DNA of 32,367 nucleotides from a virus. Shown here piece after piece: positions 7,430 to 19,268 of this stretch. Location: positions 1 to 32,367 of the IMG/VR virus record IMGVR_UViG_3300035099_000321. One strand, written 5' to 3'. The notes under the pieces were generated by a model, which saw nothing but the letters and a program-made list of their open reading frames with translations, was not told the origin of the DNA and did not search any database. Every line of letters starts with the position of its first letter. Position 1 is the stretch's first letter. The translations under genes were made by a program, and so were the position numbers.

Positions 7430-8232
7430 TTATAATGTAATCATTTGAGCTAACCAGTATTTTATTCGAGCATTAGCGATTTCAATCCACCGAGCCTCGC
7501 GCTCAATGCCAATATATTCGAAACCCTCGATACCTGCGGCATCGCATTAGAGAAATTGGCTTGACCGTCGGATGCAGGTTTGCGACGTCGGCGGCGCCCG
7601 GTTTGAACTTGGAGGGATGGTTCGGGAAATCACCCAGCGTGCGGCGTTGCCCTGTTTCGCGCAATCCCGCCTCACGGAGTCCCGCCTCGCGTTCACTTCG
7701 ACACGCTTTTGCGCAATAAAAAAATCGCGACACGCCGCCGGTATCGCCTGTTCCGGTTTCGCGTTCACCGATTTGTTCATCGAGCATTGCCGCCACGGTT
7801 TCATCGAATATTACGTTTGCAGGCCAGTTTGAGCGCCGTGCCCCAGCCGTTCCAGAGCGTGGCGGCTCCCAATTTTTTGTCGATTGCTTTCGAAACGTCG
7901 AGGTTTTTCGGGAATCCTGTTCCATACAGCCACAACAGCATATCTCGAATTTCAAATCCAGCGTCTCGAATTCGCCCCATTATAAAATCCACTGTTCGCG
8001 TGCTGCTGAATGCTAATAAATGCGCGCCCGGTTTGAGGACTCGCAGGCATTCGCGCCATAGCTCGACCGGCGGGGAATCGGAGTCCCATGTTTGCTCCAT
8101 GAATTGAATTCCGTACGGTGGGTCTGTAACTATCGCGTCAATCGAGGCGTCTGGCAATTTGCGGAGTTGTTCGAGCGCGTCTCCGTGAATTATTCTATTA
8201 GTCAACATTTGCGCGACTGGTATAGTTTCCAT
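7430..8232 (-). pseudogene. DNA methyltransferase (beta-class, DPPY type), broken by two frame-shifting deletions
   Basis: Three pieces in three different frames make one methyltransferase. Piece 1 (8232 to about 7829) has IIHGDALEQLRKLPDASIDA and motif IV TDPPYG, ending GWGTALK. Piece 2 (about 7829 to 7542) has WPANVIFDE, GVSRFFYCAKA and HPTVKPISLMR. Piece 3 (about 7540 to 7430) has AAGIEGFEYIGIEREARWIEIANARI, ending at TAA. Intact relatives have roughly 50 residues between pieces 1 and 2, and the DPF-GSGT SAM-binding motif between pieces 2 and 3; both are missing here. The product should therefore be inactive. Start 8232 is uncertain; 8208 is possible. The 5' end overlaps the ERCC4 gene. 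Confidence 0.85.
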
Positions 8233-8678
8233 GCCTTGTGTAACAACATGAATGTAAAAATCTCCGCCAGTGCTCGGTTTCCGGCGAAAACGAACGGCAC
8301 GTTGAATAGCGTTTGCCATGCTGCTATTGTTCCTAACAGAGAGTGGGCATTTAGTCGGCTAAATTTCGGCCTCTTGATAAGCACGTCATGCATCGTCGCT
8401 TCTATCACAACGGCGCGTGTTTGCATTCGCGCGAGTTTGGCCATTTCATCCATGAAGCGCTCTCGGTTTTTAGTGGAAAACGTGGAATAGAGGTCGCACA
8501 AGGACTTGCGCTCAACGGCCGCGTTGCCGGTGTTACCGGCGTCTTCGAGGAATGAATAATCACCGACGTCCAAACGGCTTCTCAACGTGCTAAATTTCGG
8601 CGGTTTCGAGTAAAAACTGAGCACCGCTTGGAACGTAAAGGCGTTTTTTTCTCGGTCGTCGACTACGAGCGTTAGCAT
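8202..8678 (-). CDS. ERCC4-domain nuclease (XPF/Mus81-type)
   Basis: This 158-aa single-domain protein shows the ERCC4 active-site pattern: VVDDREKNAF at the N terminus, LDVGDYSF near residue 40, and AVERKSLCDLY near 57-64 (the GDx(n)ERKx3D signature). Family members cut branched or flapped DNA structures and, in phages, may help replication, recombination or packaging. The start at 8678 is the first codon consistent with the domain; its ribosome site is weak. An upstream GTG at 8741 would run through the operator-like palindrome and is unlikely. It is the first gene of the leftward arm. Confidence 0.85.
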   Translation of the reverse strand: MLTLVVDDREKNAFTFQAVLSFYSKPPKFSTLRSRLDVGDYSFLEDAGNTGNAAVERKSLCDLYSTFSTKNRERFMDEMAKLARMQTRAVVIEATMHDVLIKRPKFSRLNAHSLLGTIAAWQTLFNVPFVFAGNRALAEIFTFMLLHKAWKLYQSRKC

Positions 8679-10875: not shown

Positions 10876-11759
10876 CGAATAGAACACTCGCGAAGCAATC
10901 TGGCTGCAGCTGCTCTTCCTAATGCGGACGGGTCTCTGGCCTCGTCCTTTGGCCAGTTGACTACGAAAACCCGTCCTCCGCTTTTAAACAGCTTTAAAGC
11001 CATGCGCTCGACAAGCGGGCCGATGTTAGGGTCTTTTGCTGGCGGGTCTAGCATGACCGTATAACTGCTAGGATTTTTTCTAGACAGCAGCTGCAGTTGC
11101 CGGTCAGAGAGCGTGTTGCCTAAGACCGGTATACCTATTCTACCGATACTTAGGTTTGTCAACGCAACAGCGTCAAAAGGCCCCTCAACTAGTACCACGT
11201 CCATTCCATTCTCTATCAAATCGTAAAACGGCACGACGCTCGTTTTGTCATACCAGCCGTCGCGCTTGGGCGGATTCAATGTCCTAGTTACAGTCCTAGC
11301 CTCGTTAAAAGAGCGCCCTTGAAAAAATACCAATTCCCCGTGCTGTTTGAACAGCCAACACACATAATAAGGCAATACATCCGAAACGCCTATTTCGTAC
11401 AGCGATACATCAACACCGCGCGTTTCCATGTATGCCATGGCGCGTCTGTACAAAATCCCGCCGTCAACGCCGCGCTCTAGCAGTCGCAACGTCCGGACGA
11501 ATGCGGTCTTCGATACGCCGTTGCGGCGCTCCTTGGCCTCATCCACTGCTCTCGGTACGACACGAGTATTGACGCCACCAAGGAAATCTAGTAATTGCCG
11601 CCTCGTCAAAGAGACGCCGCAACGCCAGCAATACGCGTTCCCTTCCGGAGCAACACCGAAATGTCGCCCCGTGTCCGAACAAAACGGACATTTGAAATTT
11701 TTCCATCCTCTAGCTGTAGGCGGGTCGCACCTGCCCAGCTTATCAATGAGAATCTGCAT
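10710..11759 (-). CDS. DNA primase (zinc-finger plus Toprim)
   Basis: This 349-aa DnaG-type primase has a four-Cys zinc site, Cys24/Cys27 (KCPFC) and Cys44/Cys47 (YCWRC), which recognises template. The Toprim domain includes VVLVEGPFDAVAL with Glu192, then VMLDPPAKD, where the usual DxD is reduced to one clear Asp. The conserved domain ends at PSALGRAAAARLLRE. From about residue 295 on the tail is Ser-rich and lies antisense to the 88-aa gene, so it looks like a late extension. The start at 11759 overlaps the helicase stop by 17 bases; its ribosome site is weak. It is the last gene of the replication operon. Confidence 0.88.
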   Translation of the reverse strand: MQILIDKLGRCDPPTARGWKNFKCPFCSDTGRHFGVAPEGNAYCWRCGVSLTRRQLLDFLGGVNTRVVPRAVDEAKERRNGVSKTAFVRTLRLLERGVDGGILYRRAMAYMETRGVDVSLYEIGVSDVLPYYVCWLFKQHGELVFFQGRSFNEARTVTRTLNPPKRDGWYDKTSVVPFYDLIENGMDVVLVEGPFDAVALTNLSIGRIGIPVLGNTLSDRQLQLLSRKNPSSYTVMLDPPAKDPNIGPLVERMALKLFKSGGRVFVVNWPKDEARDPSALGRAAAARLLRECSIRYSPYGKSDQSISFALCGPKPDQSSSCSDSPRFSSGQKNTLVIESVRFNSRMHCT

Positions 11760-13050
11760 CTCGTATTTGTGATACAGACCAGTCCGCCGTAACGGTTCCC
11801 ACGTCTCCGTCCATACCATCTCTGTACTTAACAATGCAAATGCGCATCGACTTATTGCGCTTTTCTCGAACAGACTGATTCAGTGTTACTACTAAATCAG
11901 CCGTCGCTATTTTGTTATAATCCTCGCGCACGTCCCATTTTTCTACAACCGTGTCGTCCTTGGATGACGGCGTGTTTGTTCTTTTTGCCGCCTCTCTGTT
12001 AGATTGAGTAGCCGACCAGACAGCAACGTCATGCTCGACGCCGATTGCACGCAGTCCGGAAAAAATAGACGATAACTCATGCCTGTACTCTTTGTATCTG
12101 GACATAGACGACATAAGGTCGCCATAATCTACTATAACGAGGTCTGGAATAAACCCATCGCGGTCGCGAAGCAAGCGCAAGTGCGCTGATAGCTTGTTCA
12201 CGTCCAGCGCGCCAGCTGAATACTGAAAAATGAAGAAACGCCCATCCTTCACGGCGCTTATGGCGTCTTGTATCCGTTGTATCGCCTCTCTTGGACGGCA
12301 CATTAGTTCGTGTTTTGTCATGCCAGAAAAACTCATGTCGAGTCGCCTCGATAACACGCGTTCTGATACTTCTAGTGTATAATAAGCGACCTTGTGTCCA
12401 CCAAGGAGCACGGCGTTTTTCCCGATGTTTAACAGAAAGTGTGTCTTCCCGACGCCGGTATCAGCCATGACAAAAGCGAATTCGCCGCGGTCTATTCCAC
12501 CATTCGTACGCTTGTCAATAAAAGAAATACCGGTAGGCACGCGACGTTCATTGCTCGCGCTGTTTCTGTAGCCAAGAACACGCTCGTTGATGTTATCAAA
12601 ATACTCCGTCTGTTTAGGACGCCCGTCGCCGACATGCGCAGCTCGAAGAAACAACTGCTCCGCTGCCTCGAATTCGCCTCTTTTCACCATTTCGCTCACA
12701 CTAAGTAATGAATCAAGCATAGCGCGCTTTTTGGCAAACGGGATAATACGCTCTTTTAAATAAGAGAATTCACGCGGCGGCGCTGAGTACAATTTACGAG
12801 CGTAGCCATCGTACTCGTCCGAGAGTTTGTTATCGGCCAACACCTGTAAAAACGCGTCTAGGGACAGGCAATCGTGATGCTTGTCAAAATACGATAACAG
12901 CAGTCCGGCCAGCTTCGCCTCGTCTGGGTTCTGAAAGAACGATGAATCCAAGCAATCGCGACACTCGTTTAGAAACCGGCTATCATGCGCAATTGCACGG
13001 AGCAAAAGCGTCTGAAATTCCGGTGTTAATTCGTTACCAATCAAGCTCAT
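11743..13050 (-). CDS. Replicative DNA helicase, DnaB-like
   Basis: This 435-aa protein has a DnaB-type N-terminal helical domain (1-110), a linker, and a RecA-fold ATPase. Linker and core begin VPTGISFIDKRTNGGIDRGE. Walker A is ADTGVGKT (196-203), Walker B is LVIVDYGDL, and a sensor-like VAVWSATQSNREA follows. It should form the hexamer that unwinds the fork with the adjacent primase. It overlaps the fusion nucleotide enzyme upstream (17 bases) and the primase downstream (17 bases). The C terminus is normal for phage DnaB proteins. Confidence 0.92.
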   Translation of the reverse strand: MSLIGNELTPEFQTLLLRAIAHDSRFLNECRDCLDSSFFQNPDEAKLAGLLLSYFDKHHDCLSLDAFLQVLADNKLSDEYDGYARKLYSAPPREFSYLKERIIPFAKKRAMLDSLLSVSEMVKRGEFEAAEQLFLRAAHVGDGRPKQTEYFDNINERVLGYRNSASNERRVPTGISFIDKRTNGGIDRGEFAFVMADTGVGKTHFLLNIGKNAVLLGGHKVAYYTLEVSERVLSRRLDMSFSGMTKHELMCRPREAIQRIQDAISAVKDGRFFIFQYSAGALDVNKLSAHLRLLRDRDGFIPDLVIVDYGDLMSSMSRYKEYRHELSSIFSGLRAIGVEHDVAVWSATQSNREAAKRTNTPSSKDDTVVEKWDVREDYNKIATADLVVTLNQSVREKRNKSMRICIVKYRDGMDGDVGTVTADWSVSQIRDADSH

Positions 13051-14587
13051 GGCGCCATTTTTCCACTACACGTAGTAGCACCGTTGCCAATTCCCTGCTC
13101 AAAACCCGCGGGTCTTCGAAACGCTGTATAGAATACACAGCAGAAGCGTGTTCCAGTGCCCAAACCGAGGGCTTGTCATCGGCGTAATGTACGACTGTAA
13201 CAGGCACGCGCGCTTGACGCGCTGCTTGAAATATCTCCGCGTGCGCGCCAGCGGAAAAAACGGGCAAGAAACTGAACACCATGTCGGACGCAAATATGTC
13301 CATTATGTCCTTTTGGATGTGCTTCTTCATGTTTGGATACGTGCCGTTCGGTGCACGCGGCCCGACGTCCTCTAATCGCCGAACTAGCGGATTGAGCAGC
13401 ATTATACCAGACAACATCGGCTCTTGTGCGAGGTTCGAACACCACGCGGATGCTATGTTATCCTCGAAGGAGCGCTGAATCGGGCCGGCCAAGTACACGA
13501 CCGGACGTACACAATGTCTTCGACGCAACATCTTATTAAAGAGTACGCCAGTTGCGCCCCTTTTCTGGTACGAGCCGCGCTTCTGGCGTTCGATGTTCTT
13601 ATTTCGTTTTTCCTCGTATTGTTCCCATAGAGTGTCCGCGTTCATACCAGCGGCCGACACGGCGGAGAGGAAAAAATGCAGTATATCCACCAATTCTTCT
13701 CTTACCTTTTCCATGTCCACCAAATCGCACGTCCACCACTCGTCCGGAAGTTCAGCCAGCGCCTCGTCTACCTCTTTGTGTAAAGCTCGAAGAAAGCGCC
13801 GTAGCCAAACTACGTGTGTGTCGTATGGACGCGCTACAGCGCCGTTCTTGTTTGCTTCCGCTACAAGCTGTTCCATCGTCAAAAGTCCCGGCTGTTTTGT
13901 CATAATCATGTCGGAGACTTCCGTGTGTAGTTGTATCAGACGTTTTAGAGTCCTAGATGCGCTTACATGATCGAAGCGGTCTGGAATTGTATCTAGAAAA
14001 CTTACACACTGCGATTCCGTGTTGTCTATGGAAAAAAACTCACAGCCCGTGTTAGCAATGGCCTCTATCGTAGTTAAGAGCTTTAACGGCTCCTGTTCAT
14101 TACGTTTCTCATCTAGCAGTCTTTTAGTTGTATCATCCTGCGCGCGCGCTGTTAGTCGTGTAATTCGTACATCGTCGGCGCACCGCACATAAACAAAAAC
14201 CGGAACGACACCGGCGCGTGCGCATGTTTCTGTACTCCATCGCACCTGGTCTACAGAACGAGGAAAACCGTCTACGAATAAAGCGGTAAATCCTCCTGCC
14301 TCATTTACAGCGTCCGCTACGATGTTTCTTACCATCTCCTCTGTTTCATACGGTGTTACCGAGTCGAAGCACTGCGCAAAGAATTGTTCACCTAACCGCG
14401 CGCGACACTGCACACCTGGAAAAACAGACATGTAATTAAAAAATCGCGCCGCCTTGGCTAGCGTAGTTTTGCCCGCGCCGGTGCGCCCTAACAAAAAGAA
14501 CACGGTCGGCTCCGGCCTATTGCAAATGCGACTTATAACAGCTTCCCAGGAAGAAAAATCTCCGTTGGAAATCTCACGGTTTTCCAT
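13034..14587 (-). CDS. Three-domain nucleotide enzyme: adenylate-kinase-like, MazG/dUTPase-like, deoxyribosyltransferase-like
   Basis: This 517-aa protein joins three enzyme folds. Residues 1-205 resemble a short adenylate kinase: P-loop GRTGAGKT (34-41), DGFPRS (106-111), and ARAQDDTTKRLLD in place of the LID and RxDD region. Residues 258-345 resemble the all-alpha NTP pyrophosphatases (MazG or dimeric dUTPase): HKEVDEA with Glu272/Glu275, REELVDILHFF with Glu298/Asp301, and EKRNKNIERQKRGSY. Residues 361-475 resemble nucleoside 2-deoxyribosyltransferases: VVYLAGPIQ, then SDMVFSFLPVFSAGAHAEIF. ATG 14587 has AGGAG eight bases upstream, inside the end of purZ. The Z-DNA context suggests dGTP to dGMP (middle) and dZMP kinase (first) roles, both inferred. 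Confidence 0.82.
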   Translation of the reverse strand: MENREISNGDFSSWEAVISRICNRPEPTVFFLLGRTGAGKTTLAKAARFFNYMSVFPGVQCRARLGEQFFAQCFDSVTPYETEEMVRNIVADAVNEAGGFTALFVDGFPRSVDQVRWSTETCARAGVVPVFVYVRCADDVRITRLTARAQDDTTKRLLDEKRNEQEPLKLLTTIEAIANTGCEFFSIDNTESQCVSFLDTIPDRFDHVSASRTLKRLIQLHTEVSDMIMTKQPGLLTMEQLVAEANKNGAVARPYDTHVVWLRRFLRALHKEVDEALAELPDEWWTCDLVDMEKVREELVDILHFFLSAVSAAGMNADTLWEQYEEKRNKNIERQKRGSYQKRGATGVLFNKMLRRRHCVRPVVYLAGPIQRSFEDNIASAWCSNLAQEPMLSGIMLLNPLVRRLEDVGPRAPNGTYPNMKKHIQKDIMDIFASDMVFSFLPVFSAGAHAEIFQAARQARVPVTVVHYADDKPSVWALEHASAVYSIQRFEDPRVLSRELATVLLRVVEKWRHELDW

Positions 14588-15723
14588 ATGTCATTCTCCT
14601 CAAGATTCACCATGCTCTTTAGCGTCGGACCGGTGCCTAGCAAACGAATTTTAACGGAGCTAAGCGGCTCGGACGCGCTTTGCCACAACATCGTGGAAAT
14701 CCTATCAACGAGCTGCTCAAGCCACGTTGTAACCGTTGCGGGGAGATTGTAAACATCATTGCAACCGCTAGCAGTGAAATCTATATAATCCACGTGATTA
14801 ATGCACAGATACGTCGGAGCGCAGTATCGAAGAAAGCGCAGAAATTGTGCGTCTGACCACGTGAAGACGCGGCGCGGCTTGTTTGTTACAGTAGTTTTCT
14901 CTACCAGAGGAGCAATGTCTTTTGGCCTAGCAGACGCGTTTGCTACGAGATTCCACGTTATCTCCTGCTGGTCGGGATAACAAGGGCCAGACCAGCCGTA
15001 CCTCGGCTCGTTGAACAAACCCTCGCCGCTCAAATTGCCTACACGTATTGGATACGTACGTAGAACACCGAAGACGCTACCAACGAGACAGGGCGGGCAG
15101 CCGAAGTCGGCTGCTATTGAAGACGTGGTAATATCACGAGACGTAGTAAACGGATACGAATGGCCATGATTCAATGACAAGTCAAAGCCTTGTGGACTCT
15201 CAGCCAAAACAGCGCCACCGCGTCTCAACACGTTATGAATCTCTCCGCACACGTCGCCGATAAAAGGCGAAAGCTCTGCTACATCCCTAGCTAAGCGGGC
15301 TTTGCGCAATACCTTTCTGGCCAAAGCGTATCCACCGCCCTGTTTGGTAGAACTTATGGCGTCCAAGCCCTGTTCGTCTTCGTGTCGTTTATCATCATCT
15401 TCGAGTATCGTGGCCTTCTCGTCTATAATCAAGCGCTTCTGCACGCCGTGTGTTTCGATTTCCTCTAACACGCGCTTCACGTCTAATACCGCCGTAGGGC
15501 CAATACCAAGCAACACGTCGTCGTTCAAGACGGATGACGGGAGCTGCTTTAACACGAACTTGTTACCGTCCGGATCGTAGTGTGTATGGCCAGCATTAGG
15601 AGCGAAATTGCATACCGCCATCGCCGGTGAATAATGATGGGCAAGGTAGGACGCCACCTTGCCCTTTCCCGTCGAACCCCATTGGCCGTCAATTATGATG
15701 TTTAGCTTCCCTCTCTGCAACAT
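14533..15723 (-). CDS. purZ: PurZ-like deoxy-2-aminoadenylosuccinate synthetase
   Basis: This 396-aa protein is an adenylosuccinate synthetase homologue with IIIDGQWGSTGKGKVASYLA (10-29) and APNAGHT (41-47). In PurA the loop is GDEGKGK and its Asp is catalytic; here it is GSTGKGK, with Ser17. As I recall, the Ser is typical of phage PurZ enzymes, which condense dGMP with aspartate so that host PurB can produce dZMP. AESPQGFDLSLNHGHSYPFTTSRD and the TYPIRVGN segment also match that family. It lies between SSB and the fusion enzyme in an overlapping operon. An ordinary PurA, or a PurZ0-like archaeal type, is less likely given the loop. Confidence 0.88.
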   Translation of the reverse strand: MLQRGKLNIIIDGQWGSTGKGKVASYLAHHYSPAMAVCNFAPNAGHTHYDPDGNKFVLKQLPSSVLNDDVLLGIGPTAVLDVKRVLEEIETHGVQKRLIIDEKATILEDDDKRHEDEQGLDAISSTKQGGGYALARKVLRKARLARDVAELSPFIGDVCGEIHNVLRRGGAVLAESPQGFDLSLNHGHSYPFTTSRDITTSSIAADFGCPPCLVGSVFGVLRTYPIRVGNLSGEGLFNEPRYGWSGPCYPDQQEITWNLVANASARPKDIAPLVEKTTVTNKPRRVFTWSDAQFLRFLRYCAPTYLCINHVDYIDFTASGCNDVYNLPATVTTWLEQLVDRISTMLWQSASEPLSSVKIRLLGTGPTLKSMVNLEENDIWKTVRFPTEIFLPGKLL

Positions 15724-15726
15724 GAC

Positions 15727-16590
15727 TCATCCTATCTTCAAGTTGCCAATTTCCTCTTCCCACTCCTCGCCGTTTACGTCTACCACCGCAATGTTACCCT
15801 CTGTAGACTTCACAACGCCTTTCAGTCGCTTCCCTTTCGGGTCTTCGATGGTAACCGTTTTTCCTACCATGTCTCCCGAATCCGTTTTTTCTTCGTCATC
15901 ATCCGCGCCGTGCGGTGGAAAATCCGGAACGTACCCGTCCATGCCGTACCCTGGCGACAGCTCTTCGAGCCCGTAAAGGTCTTTCACCCCGTCTAGCAGT
16001 TCTCTCGGCAGCTTAGCGCTGCGCCCACGGTCGCGTACCTTGACGCTGTACTGCTCGGAGGGCTGCTTGCTCGGTTCTCTTGTTATAATAAAATCCGTAC
16101 CGTTCACACCAAACGCGCTCTCCCCGCCGTCCTCGTCATCAAGCAGATGGTCAAGGATCGGCTCGAAGGCAGTCCTCGGTAAAGATGCTAGCTGTATTCC
16201 AGACTCTATGTCATTCATGTCCACTACGTTCAAATGGTGCATTCGCCGAGGCAACTGCATCTTACCGGCACGATGGTCGCTCTTGTGTTTGCTGTTCATA
16301 AGAGCCTTAGCGTCGGCACACGCGGCGCAGTCTCTTCCACCGCTACAATTTCCGTGGCCGTCCGGCCAGAAGTGCTTCGCTGCTTCACGGTCAATCTCCG
16401 TCGTTATAGTACCGACTTCCATGCCGTAAAACGGGCTGCTCTCGTCCTTGGATTCTTGTTTTGTTACCTCATGCTCGAACAAAAAGATGCGCCACACGTT
16501 CTTTCCGGGTTTGGCTCTTAGAACCCCGCCGCCGCCTTTTTGCTGCATACCCTCTTTTTTCCTTTTCATTCGTTCCTTGTCTATAGGCAT
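15727..16590 (-). CDS. Single-stranded DNA-binding protein, gp32-like (probable)
   Basis: This 287-aa protein has a basic N terminus, a Cys/His cluster of gp32 style (HFWPDGHGNCSGGRDCAACADAK, with Cys82, Cys88 and Cys91), and aromatic/basic beta segments (VWRIFLFEHEV). A long acidic stretch (DDDEEKTDSGD) follows, then a KOW-like C-terminal module (VGKTVTIEDPKGKRLKGVV) that is atypical for an SSB. It has a strong AAGGAGG ribosome site and is three bases from both neighbours. It should coat single strands at the fork. Confidence rests on composition and position between polymerase and helicase genes. Confidence 0.7.
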   Translation of the reverse strand: MPIDKERMKRKKEGMQQKGGGGVLRAKPGKNVWRIFLFEHEVTKQESKDESSPFYGMEVGTITTEIDREAAKHFWPDGHGNCSGGRDCAACADAKALMNSKHKSDHRAGKMQLPRRMHHLNVVDMNDIESGIQLASLPRTAFEPILDHLLDDEDGGESAFGVNGTDFIITREPSKQPSEQYSVKVRDRGRSAKLPRELLDGVKDLYGLEELSPGYGMDGYVPDFPPHGADDDEEKTDSGDMVGKTVTIEDPKGKRLKGVVKSTEGNIAVVDVNGEEWEEEIGNLKIG

Positions 16591-16874: not shown

Positions 16875-19268
16875 TCACCATGTATCACTTATAGTAACGT
16901 CTACCCGAAGCTCTACGACGTACACCGGATAACGCTGCGGCAGTTTTTTTGTCATTGTGTCAACGAGCAACTCCGATACTCTTTTTACCTCGCTTGGATG
17001 CGCATCAACTATCAATGAGTCGTGCACTTGCGCAATCAAACAGCTCTTATAACCTCTGCGCACGAGCTCAGAGTCGACCTTTGTCATTGCCCAAGCCGTC
17101 ATATCCGCTGCAAACGACTGAATAGGGAAATTGCTAGCCTGTAACACCGCGGCCGTGTCTCCGCTTTTTGCCGCTGGTAAATGGCGCACTCGGCCTAGAC
17201 GGCTTCGTACAAAACCGTATTCTACAGCAAAATCGCGTTGCGCTTCTATATAACGAGACACCATTGGATAGGTTTTTCTATGACGCGCCAGTAGCGTTTT
17301 TGCGTACTTGATGTCGTCAGGTTTTTTTAAATGCCACGCCAGCTCTTTCGCTCCAATACCATACACAACGCCGAAACTAACTCTTTTCGCTTGACAACGC
17401 TGCTCGTCCGTGTAATTTTGACCGAAAATCTCCGCCGCTGTAACGCCGTGTACGTCGCCACCAGCTTTGAACACCTCTAACAACGCCGGTTCGAGGGACT
17501 CATTAGCAACTAGCATTAATTCGAGTTGCATATAATCCGCCGTTACAATGCTCCCGCCTTTGAACCTAGATACCAGCGCCTTTCTTATGTCGCTTGTTCG
17601 TTTCAACGCTTGCGCATTAAAATCGGTACAGTTCAGCCTTCCGGTAACTACATACCCTTGATGCCAATTACAACTAGTCGTACCGTCGTTTCGCAACTTT
17701 CTCATAATCTGGTCTATTACATCGAGGTCGTGCTGCATTGAACGCACGGCGGATATTTGTTTTAAAACCGGGTGTTTATCCTCTAGCGCTTCTATCACCT
17801 CTCGCCTCGTGCTAGGCGCGCCGTTTTTCGTGGTACGAAGCACGTCCAATTTCAAGACGTCGTAAAGCAGTGTACTAGTCTGCTTCGAGGACTGGAAATT
17901 GAAGACACCGTCCCGAACGCCGCATAACAGCAATGCTTCTTGTATCACGGGCTCTTTGTTCAAAGACTCCGTCGCCTCTTCGCAGCGCCGCTGAATATCG
18001 TGTCGCGTTTCGGCCATGCGCGCCCTATCTACCTTTATCCCGCGTTCCTCTATCCTCGCGAGCGTCCGCACGGCCGGTAGTGTTATTTCGTTATACAAAT
18101 CCAAGAGCTTTGAGTCTTCCTCCAACGTAGGACGCAGTGTATTTCGTATAAGACCGGTAGTAATAACGTCTCCGCTGCAATACGAGAAAAGCTCTTTATC
18201 TGGGGCGTCCGACGTTTTATTTCCGTCCGCGTCGCGCCACTGCTTCATCCAGTTGTCATACCCGCCGTACGGCGTGTACCTATGCGCCAATATCTCCAAG
18301 TTATGCAAACTCTCCTCATCTAATAGATGATGAAGCTGGTACGTGTCATCCACCAAGTTGGCTGGCTCAACCCCGAAATGAATGCGACTCCAAGCTGCCT
18401 CGAATTTAGCGTTGTGTGCTACCTTTGGAACCGGAGACCGCAGCCAGTCGGAAAACGCCCTTCTCACATCGTCTCTCACACCACCGGCAAAACTAATAAT
18501 AACAGCATCTAGCGAACCGGCCTCACACAAACCGACACACACCGGAACACCAAGCGTCGGCTCTAATTCGGTAGTTTCGAAATCAAATACCATAGGACGG
18601 CAACGCGCCGACGAGTGCTGCAGCAAAAACGCGCGTATCTCTCCACTAGTGTACAAGACCTTATAAGACATTGGCGTTACGGCGGATGCGGCCTTTTTGC
18701 CGCCTATAAACGACACCACCGATTGAAGATGCGCCGCAAAAACCCTACCATTGCTCTTTTGATGAAGAACAGCCGACGGATGGAGCATCGGTATGACCGG
18801 AATTTTCCGTAGCTTGGGCACGTGCTCTTGCATGCTGTACTCTCTGAGTACAATTCCGCCCCATTGCATGACGCTCTTTGCTCCCACGATTACGCTTGTG
18901 GCTGTTTTTCCTAGCGTAACTAACAACGCGGACGGTGGAAAGGCAAGGAGCTCTTGCACGACATTGGGAAAGCACGCTTCCACGTGATTTTTTCTGGGCT
19001 TGCGTATCTCGCCGTCGTCATCGTGAGGAAAACACCGTACAACGTTGGTAAGGCGAATCGCGTATCGGTCTAATCCGGTTTCTCTGAGTTTTTGTGTTAG
19101 CAACCTGCCAGCTGGGCCGACAAAACACTCTCCCCTTTTATCTTCTTCTGGGCCAGGAGCTTCCCCAATAAAAACTATTTCGGGCTCGTTACTTCCCCGC
19201 CCGTCTATACAAAAGGTACAGCATTTTTTGTACAGACCGCACTTCACGCAGTTTTTCGGGATAGCCAT
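16875..19268 (-). CDS. Family A DNA polymerase with N-terminal uracil-DNA glycosylase and 3'-5' exonuclease
   Basis: This 797-aa fusion begins with a family-4 UDG (1-190): Cys7, Cys10, Cys79 and Cys99 (4Fe-4S pattern), GEAPGPEED (35-43) and MLHPSAV (161-167). A DEDDy exonuclease follows: DFETT (229-233), HNAKFE (285-290) and YCSGD (363-367). The PolA core has GRLNCTDFNAQ, motif A DYMQLEL (Asp578), motif B RCQAKRVSFGVVYG (Lys628, Tyr636) and motif C QVHDSLIVD (His749, Asp750), where the usual HDE is HDS. It replicates the phage genome; in a Z-genome phage it would be the DpoZ-like polymerase. The exonuclease motif II Glu290, where Asp is usual, is worth note. The start at 19268 has a GAGGAAG site. 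Confidence 0.92.
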   Translation of the reverse strand: MAIPKNCVKCGLYKKCCTFCIDGRGSNEPEIVFIGEAPGPEEDKRGECFVGPAGRLLTQKLRETGLDRYAIRLTNVVRCFPHDDDGEIRKPRKNHVEACFPNVVQELLAFPPSALLVTLGKTATSVIVGAKSVMQWGGIVLREYSMQEHVPKLRKIPVIPMLHPSAVLHQKSNGRVFAAHLQSVVSFIGGKKAASAVTPMSYKVLYTSGEIRAFLLQHSSARCRPMVFDFETTELEPTLGVPVCVGLCEAGSLDAVIISFAGGVRDDVRRAFSDWLRSPVPKVAHNAKFEAAWSRIHFGVEPANLVDDTYQLHHLLDEESLHNLEILAHRYTPYGGYDNWMKQWRDADGNKTSDAPDKELFSYCSGDVITTGLIRNTLRPTLEEDSKLLDLYNEITLPAVRTLARIEERGIKVDRARMAETRHDIQRRCEEATESLNKEPVIQEALLLCGVRDGVFNFQSSKQTSTLLYDVLKLDVLRTTKNGAPSTRREVIEALEDKHPVLKQISAVRSMQHDLDVIDQIMRKLRNDGTTSCNWHQGYVVTGRLNCTDFNAQALKRTSDIRKALVSRFKGGSIVTADYMQLELMLVANESLEPALLEVFKAGGDVHGVTAAEIFGQNYTDEQRCQAKRVSFGVVYGIGAKELAWHLKKPDDIKYAKTLLARHRKTYPMVSRYIEAQRDFAVEYGFVRSRLGRVRHLPAAKSGDTAAVLQASNFPIQSFAADMTAWAMTKVDSELVRRGYKSCLIAQVHDSLIVDAHPSEVKRVSELLVDTMTKKLPQRYPVYVVELRVDVTISDTW

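What the first reader, a model, noticed from the sequence alone, without database searches (positions are those of the whole stretch)
13034..14587. A three-domain nucleotide enzyme next to PurZ: kinase + MazG/dUTPase + deoxyribosyltransferase
Seen: one 517-aa ORF with a short adenylate-kinase-like P-loop domain, an all-alpha NTP-pyrophosphatase domain and a YLAGP-type deoxyribosyltransferase domain. Known: Z phages use separate MazZ (dGTP to dGMP) and host kinases. Inference: this polypeptide could supply dGMP for PurZ and phosphorylate dZMP, channelling Z synthesis in one protein. I know of no description of this exact fusion.
Basis: partly seen in the sequence, partly recalled or inferred. 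Interest (0 to 1): 0.85.

Follow-up and report, generated by a model that had tools for sequence, protein, structure and literature searches.

The report
Three-in-one nucleotide enzyme beside PurZ
A virus of bacteria that probably swaps the DNA letter A for 2-aminoadenine (Z) carries one protein made of three linked enzymes (a kinase, a dNTP pyrophosphatase and a nucleotide N-glycosidase/deoxyribosyltransferase) directly behind the gene for the key Z-making enzyme, and many related viruses carry the same kinase at that spot, a part that the descriptions of Z phages we could read do not mention.

Summary
Window 13034-14587, MINUS strand, is one 517-aa ORF with three real domains: adenylate-kinase-like (27-195), all-alpha dUTPase/MazG-type pyrophosphohydrolase (205-345) and a DNPH1/NDT-type N-glycosidase (356-517), all with catalytic residues intact. 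It lies between purZ and dnaB; no DatZ or MazZ was detected in the 32 kb. Domains 1-2 are confident in AlphaFold. Domain 3 is nearly invisible to sequence profiles but folds well (pTM 0.83) and matches MilB/DNPH1. The kinase+pyrophosphatase fusion recurs behind purZ in seven other contigs; two more carry kinase, pyrophosphatase and NDT as adjacent genes in the same order. The triple fusion itself was seen only here. The nearest described protein is the DmtZ-DutZ fusion of PurZ0 phages (NAR 2026): two of the three activities, an unrelated dUTPase fold, reverse order. The kinase is the new element: it lies near purZ in 31 of 87 non-redundant loci, and the two open papers checked name no phage enzyme for dZMP phosphorylation. 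Likely function: dGTP/dATP/dUTP to dNMP, dAMP destruction or Z salvage, phosphorylation of dZMP. Substrates are untested, and the DmtZ residue important for dAMP (Asp12) is Gln here. New variant of a known kind.

The parts
13034..14587 (-). Triple-domain enzyme, 517 aa (kinase + all-alpha NTP pyrophosphohydrolase + NDT/DNPH1-type N-glycosidase)
   Evidence: ORF; domains by Pfam/PHROG/HMM/AF2
14003..14509 (-). Domain 1, residues 27-195: adenylate-kinase-like NMP kinase; P-loop GRTGAGKT 34-41, R62, DGFPRSVDQ 106-114 (R110, Q114), R144/R148
13553..13975 (-). Domain 2, residues 205-345: all-alpha dUTPase_2/MazG-type pyrophosphohydrolase; metal motif E272xxE275...E298xxD301
13037..13522 (-). Domain 3, residues 356-517: NDT-superfamily domain; triad Y365, D427, E451; P400; possible lid W476; Q371 at the DmtZ Asp12 position
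14596..14601 (-). Shine-Dalgarno-like GAGGAG, 8 nt before the ATG
   Evidence: sequence
14533..15723 (-). PurZ: DGQWGSTGKGK with Ser17 in place of the PurA catalytic Asp
11743..13050 (-). DnaB-type replicative helicase (next gene; same neighbour in related loci)
15727..16590 (-). ssDNA-binding-protein-like gene before purZ (context)
   Evidence: phrog_1192, 2.9e-7
16875..19268 (-). Family A DNA polymerase with N-terminal family-4 uracil-DNA glycosylase domain (context, candidate Z polymerase)

Best explanation
The protein is the nucleotide-pool enzyme of a Z (2-aminoadenine) phage, joining three steps around PurZ in one chain. The middle domain cuts dNTPs to dNMPs (expected dGTP to dGMP, feeding PurZ; dATP to dAMP, removing the competitor of dZTP; dUTP to dUMP). 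The C-terminal NDT/DNPH1-type domain acts on the dNMP produced, most likely splitting dAMP into adenine and deoxyribose 5-phosphate and possibly moving that sugar to free Z base to give dZMP, as DmtZ does. The N-terminal adenylate-kinase-like domain phosphorylates the product dZMP to dZDP. Shown: the three folds, intact catalytic residues, position behind purZ, recurrence of the kinase and of the kinase-pyrophosphatase fusion beside purZ, and same-order separate genes in two relatives. Inferred: all substrates, and any channelling.
For: Domains and residues. PurZ directly upstream with the Ser signature. No DatZ (HD), MazZ, DUF550, DUF5664 or trimeric Dut was detected in the window by our HMMs, so this protein is the only candidate seen for pool control; the record may be a fragment. 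Kinase within 6 kb of purZ in 31 of 87 non-redundant loci, 28 of them within 50 bp or overlapping; fused to the all-alpha pyrophosphatase in L012, L014, L017/L018, L019, L020, L145, L159, and in L027 fused to the unrelated trimeric dUTPase: kinase-dNTPase fusion with two unrelated folds. L013 and L021 carry purZ-kinase-pyrophosphatase-NDT-dnaB as separate genes in the same order. Bacillus phage vB_BpsS-140 has purZ, adk, dut and an NDT gene apart. Some bacterial chromosomes carry a P-loop kinase fused directly to a Ser-type PurZ. Biochemical precedent for dNTPase + NDT beside PurZ: PMC12884076. The residue corresponding to E. coli AK Gln92 (contacts N1/N6 of adenine; own knowledge) is invariant in the PurZ-linked kinases aligned, fitting a 6-aminopurine such as dZMP.
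Against: No enzyme test. The middle domain's best family is dUTPase_2, and similar domains occur near UDG-polymerases in contigs where no purZ was seen, so plain dUTPase duty is possible. DmtZ Asp12, whose mutation lost dAMP hydrolysis, is Gln371 here. A kinase accepting dAMP would undo dATP depletion, so it must discriminate for Z, which is not shown. The NDT domain is fused only in this contig and was not found in the other fusion loci examined. Whether this phage has Z-DNA is not shown; its polymerase scores far below the curated DpoZ cut-offs.
Confidence: 0.6

Rival explanations
1. House-cleaning module: the middle domain is an ordinary dUTPase that works with the UDG-polymerase fusion to keep uracil out of the DNA; the NDT domain destroys dUMP or damaged dNMPs (like DNPH1 on hmdUMP); the kinase recycles monophosphates. 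PurZ proximity reflects a shared operon.
For: Best family of the middle domain is dUTPase_2; UDG fused to the polymerase in the window and in 15 of 31 kinase loci; similar pyrophosphatase domains near UDG-PolA without purZ seen; human DNPH1 structures with hmdUMP among good fold matches.
Against: Kinase abuts purZ repeatedly across diverged PurZ lineages; DutZ-type enzymes of dUTPase ancestry beside PurZ0 are proven to act on dATP and dGTP as well as dUTP (PMC12884076); PurZ-linked middle domains mostly group apart from the others (modest support).
Confidence: 0.2
2. The kinase serves supply rather than dZMP: it phosphorylates dGMP, dCMP or dTMP (as T4 gp1 does) to keep canonical dNTPs flowing while the other two domains thin out dATP.
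For: Adenylate-kinase-fold enzymes include UMP/CMP kinases with similar structural scores; the kinase substrate cannot be read from sequence.
Against: Gln at the adenine-contact position is invariant in the aligned PurZ-linked kinases, whereas UMP/CMP kinases have Asn there (own knowledge); the linkage is to purZ, whose product becomes dZMP.
Confidence: 0.15
3. The three-domain ORF is an assembly chimera or a decayed gene.
For: Triple fusion seen once; no relative with the NDT domain attached found.
Against: Continuous frame with intact catalytic residues in each domain, ribosome-binding site, homogeneous G+C, correct flanking synteny, and same-order separate genes in L013/L021.
Confidence: 0.03

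Closest known systems
DmtZ-DutZ fusion of Arthrobacter phage Wayne (ALY10777.1) and separate DmtZ/DutZ of Gordonia phage Ghobes (PMC12884076)
   Same: NDT-superfamily domain and a dNTP pyrophosphatase of dUTPase ancestry joined or adjacent beside PurZ; catalytic Tyr and Glu and the water-excluding Pro conserved
   Different: Wayne has no kinase; order is NDT-Dut, here kinase-pyrophosphatase-NDT; Wayne's Dut is the trimeric dUTPase family, here the unrelated all-alpha family; DmtZ Asp12 is Gln371 and Asn77 is Asp427; PurZ here has GSTGKG, not the GSEAKG of Ghobes/Wayne PurZ0
MazZ / DUF550 of S-2L and SH-Ab 15497
   Same: all-alpha NTP pyrophosphohydrolase superfamily, beside PurZ, expected to make dGMP
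   Different: closest profile is dUTPase_2 not MazG; fused to kinase and NDT; no DatZ partner seen in this window
DNPH1/Rcl and MilB
   Same: fold (Z 14-15) and catalytic residues of the C-terminal domain; act on nucleotides not nucleosides
   Different: 15-19% identity; stand-alone enzymes outside Z metabolism
Adenylate kinase (short-lid type)
   Same: fold (Z 16), P-loop, NMP-site Arg, PR..Q motif
   Different: 18-20% identity; ISTGD segment replaced (FPGVQ); fused, purZ-linked; no match among 50,697 phage records with two PurZ-linked kinases as queries

Membership tests
Adenylate kinase fold / NMP kinase | P-loop GxxGxGK[ST] and NMP-site Arg plus PR...Q motif | tested here: met
   GRTGAGKT 34-41, R62, R110, Q114; fold Z 16.4
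Adenylate kinase fold / NMP kinase | Substrate AMP/dAMP/dZMP | not testable with these tools
   No assay; Gln114 compatible
All-alpha NTP pyrophosphohydrolase (dUTPase_2/MazG) | ExxE...ExxD metal motif on a helical core | tested here: met
   E272/E275/E298/D301; dUTPase_2 7.5e-8; helical, pLDDT mostly >90
MazZ (dGTP pyrophosphatase) | dGTP specificity | not testable with these tools
   Profile favours dUTPase_2 (7.5e-8) over MazG (0.22)
NDT superfamily / dNMP N-glycosidase | Rossmann-like fold with Tyr, Asp/Asn, Glu triad | tested here: met
   pTM 0.83; MilB Z 15.3, DNPH1 14.4; Y365, D427, E451
NDT superfamily (Pfam PF05014 model) | Match to the family model | tested here: not met
   No match; the separate NDT of L013 scores 4.8e-5
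DmtZ | Asp at position 12 (needed for dAMP activity in Ghobes DmtZ) | tested here: not met
   Q371 at the aligned position; not filed as DmtZ
DmtZ | dAMP hydrolysis and dAMP-to-Z transfer | not testable with these tools
   No assay
DutZ | Trimeric dUTPase fold (PF00692) | tested here: not met
   Middle domain is all-alpha
PurZ (neighbour gene) | Asp-to-Ser change of the PurA catalytic residue | tested here: met
   DGQWGSTGKGK
PurZ (NCBIfam NF038379 model) | Score above curated cut-off | tested here: not met
   225 bits against 300: a divergent PurZ lineage

The most novel reading that the evidence does not exclude
PurZ-linked kinases are dedicated phage dZMP kinases, filling the dZMP to dZDP step attributed so far to host enzymes, and this protein is a one-chain Z-nucleotide factory in a separate lineage of Z phages (kinase + dNTPase + UDG-fused polymerase, mostly without DatZ).
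Probability: 0.4. Interest if true: 0.75.

Novelty: new variant of a known kind. Interest (0 to 1): 0.62.

Why it matters
In the two open papers on Z-DNA biosynthesis checked here, phage enzymes make the precursor and clear dATP, but phosphorylation of dZMP is left to unspecific host enzymes. A kinase that sits on purZ again and again, and is found fused to two unrelated kinds of dNTPase, makes a phage-encoded dZMP kinase directly testable, and would help build Z-DNA in other hosts. The triple fusion also suggests how pool control may be physically coupled: one enzyme that both empties the dATP pool and fills the dZTP pool.

Tried and rejected
Single-protein scans of viral contigs with the full protein and with the polymerase found no relatives. 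Kinase-only alignments were too diverse for a scan, so how often this kinase occurs away from purZ in viral contigs was not measured; the loci came mostly from purZ searches, a bias. The first AF2 run left the C-terminal domain unresolved for lack of relatives; solved by adding DmtZ-type and split NDT genes. PF05014 search of the window: no match. I first saw kinase and DatZ as mutually exclusive (none of 74 with both); a larger set gave two loci with both (L167, L181) against 31 with kinase and 33 with DatZ, and a tree-based test shows that the pattern follows PurZ lineage and is not independently significant, so it is not used as evidence. Assembly chimera considered and judged unlikely. Membership in DmtZ, DutZ and MazZ considered and not claimed. 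The middle domain was not seen in the fold search list, which the kinase filled: its fold assignment rests on sequence profiles and predicted helices.

Full report
What is there. The stretch 13034-14587 holds one 517-aa open frame on the minus strand. It starts 55 bp inside the end of purZ (14533-15723), behind GAGGAG at 8 nt, and ends 17 bp inside dnaB (11743-13050). The order polymerase, small gene, SSB-like gene, purZ, this gene, dnaB, primase-like gene is largely the same in related viral contigs such as L012, L013, L014, L017 and L020.

Domain 1, residues about 27-195, is an adenylate-kinase-fold NMP kinase: Pfam AAA_18 6.4e-7 and ADK 2.9e-5, M. tuberculosis adenylate kinase 1.5e-5 by phmmer, AlphaFold pLDDT mostly above 90 and VIA Z 16.4 over 165 residues. 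The residues invariant across the 21 aligned PurZ-linked kinases are those of adenylate kinases: P-loop G39-K40, G58, R62, P109, R110, Q114, R148. Q114 falls on E. coli AK Gln92, which contacts N1 and N6 of adenine (own knowledge); Z keeps both. The ISTGD segment of true adenylate kinases is FPGVQ here.

Domain 2, residues about 205-345, is an all-alpha NTP pyrophosphohydrolase: dUTPase_2 7.5e-8, PHROG dUTPase 4.8e-11, helical with pLDDT above 90 for most of its length, metal motif E272, E275, E298, D301. PurZ-linked copies sit mostly apart from non-PurZ copies in a small tree, with modest support.

Domain 3, residues 356-517, is hard to see by sequence: no useful Pfam, NCBIfam, PHROG or PDB sequence match. 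An HMM of DmtZ relatives gives 15.9 bits; the best of 3000 shuffles gives 6.3. Folded with an alignment of DmtZ-type proteins and two separate NDT genes from related phages it reaches pLDDT 83 and pTM 0.83, and its best matches are MilB (Z 15.3), a 2-deoxyribosyltransferase (14.8) and DNPH1/Rcl (14.4). These are the same best relatives that PMC12884076 reports for the DmtZ part of phage Wayne. The triad Y365, D427, E451 and the water-excluding P400 are present; W476 may match the lid Trp124; the DmtZ residue Asp12 is Q371.

Relatives. PurZ searches of IMG/VR gave, with isolates, 94 PurZ representatives below 90% identity; 87 have 2 kb or more downstream. A kinase of this kind is within 6 kb of purZ in 31, and in 28 of those it abuts or overlaps. 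It is fused to the all-alpha pyrophosphatase in seven contigs (L012, L014, L017/L018, L019, L020, L145, L159; the match in L159 is weak) and to a trimeric dUTPase in L027. L013 and L021 carry kinase, pyrophosphatase and NDT as three adjacent genes between purZ and dnaB; the L013 NDT has its own Pfam support, 4.8e-5. The triple fusion was found only in the window. Bacillus phage vB_BpsS-140, an isolate, has purZ, adk, dut and an NDT gene apart. Two PurZ-linked kinases used as queries found nothing in 50,697 phage records.

Caution on statistics. Kinase and DatZ seldom occur together (2 loci, against 31 and 33), but presence follows PurZ lineages and an independent-pairs test has no power. The sample was drawn through purZ, so it cannot show how often the kinase lives without purZ.

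Function. PMC12884076 shows that in PurZ0 phages a dUTPase-derived enzyme (DutZ) turns dATP, dGTP and dUTP into monophosphates and DmtZ turns dAMP into adenine or moves its sugar-phosphate to Z, giving dZMP; the two are fused in Wayne. [quoted passage not shown] Domains 2 and 3 here parallel DutZ and DmtZ by convergence or distant kinship, with a different fold for the pyrophosphatase. No DatZ, MazZ, DUF550 or DUF5664 was detected elsewhere in the window, so this protein is the only candidate seen for the job; the record may be a fragment. A kinase in the same chain most simply serves dZMP, the product whose next step is phosphorylation. All substrates are inferred.

Verdict. Observation confirmed. 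New variant of a known kind; the purZ-linked kinase is the most interesting part.

Noticed in passing
L209:195-9735 (Rhizobium rhizogenes NBRC 13257); also L201, L203-L208, L212, L213 and viral contig L186: Proteins of about 530-560 aa joining an N-terminal P-loop kinase domain (Pfam-checked in L209, L212, L201, L205, L186) to a Ser-type PurZ (GQWGSEGKG), most in bacterial chromosomes. In L209 the neighbours are a SIR2_2 protein, an NDT (PF05014 2e-19), a divergent YfbR-like HD protein and DUF7002; L212 and L205 also have a DUF7002-like neighbour. It looks like a defence-island cassette (a neighbour matches PADLOC PDC-S06)..
   Followed up: partly
window 16875-19268 (-): Family A DNA polymerase with an N-terminal family-4 uracil-DNA glycosylase domain; the same fusion occurs in 15 of 31 kinase-bearing PurZ loci and in none of 33 DatZ loci. 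It is far below the curated DpoZ cut-offs and may be a separate Z-polymerase lineage.
   Followed up: partly
L027:9121-10125: The same kinase type fused to a trimeric dUTPase directly behind purZ: a separate kinase-dNTPase fusion.
   Followed up: partly
L003:2537-20536 and L005 (Bacillus phage vB_BpsS-140, MH884512): An isolated phage with purZ, adk, dut and an NDT-like gene (AZS49232.1, annotated hypothetical): a practical test organism for Z-DNA and for the kinase.
   Followed up: partly
window 7503-8319 (-): DNA methylase (N6_N4_Mtase 3.2e-7) that seems split over two overlapping frames, 7801-8319 and 7503-7955; frameshift, assembly error or decay. An adenine-type methylase would be odd in a Z genome.
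   Followed up: no
L013:9690-10542: Pyrophosphatase and NDT genes overlap by about 95 bp out of frame, a possible intermediate towards the fusion.
   Followed up: no
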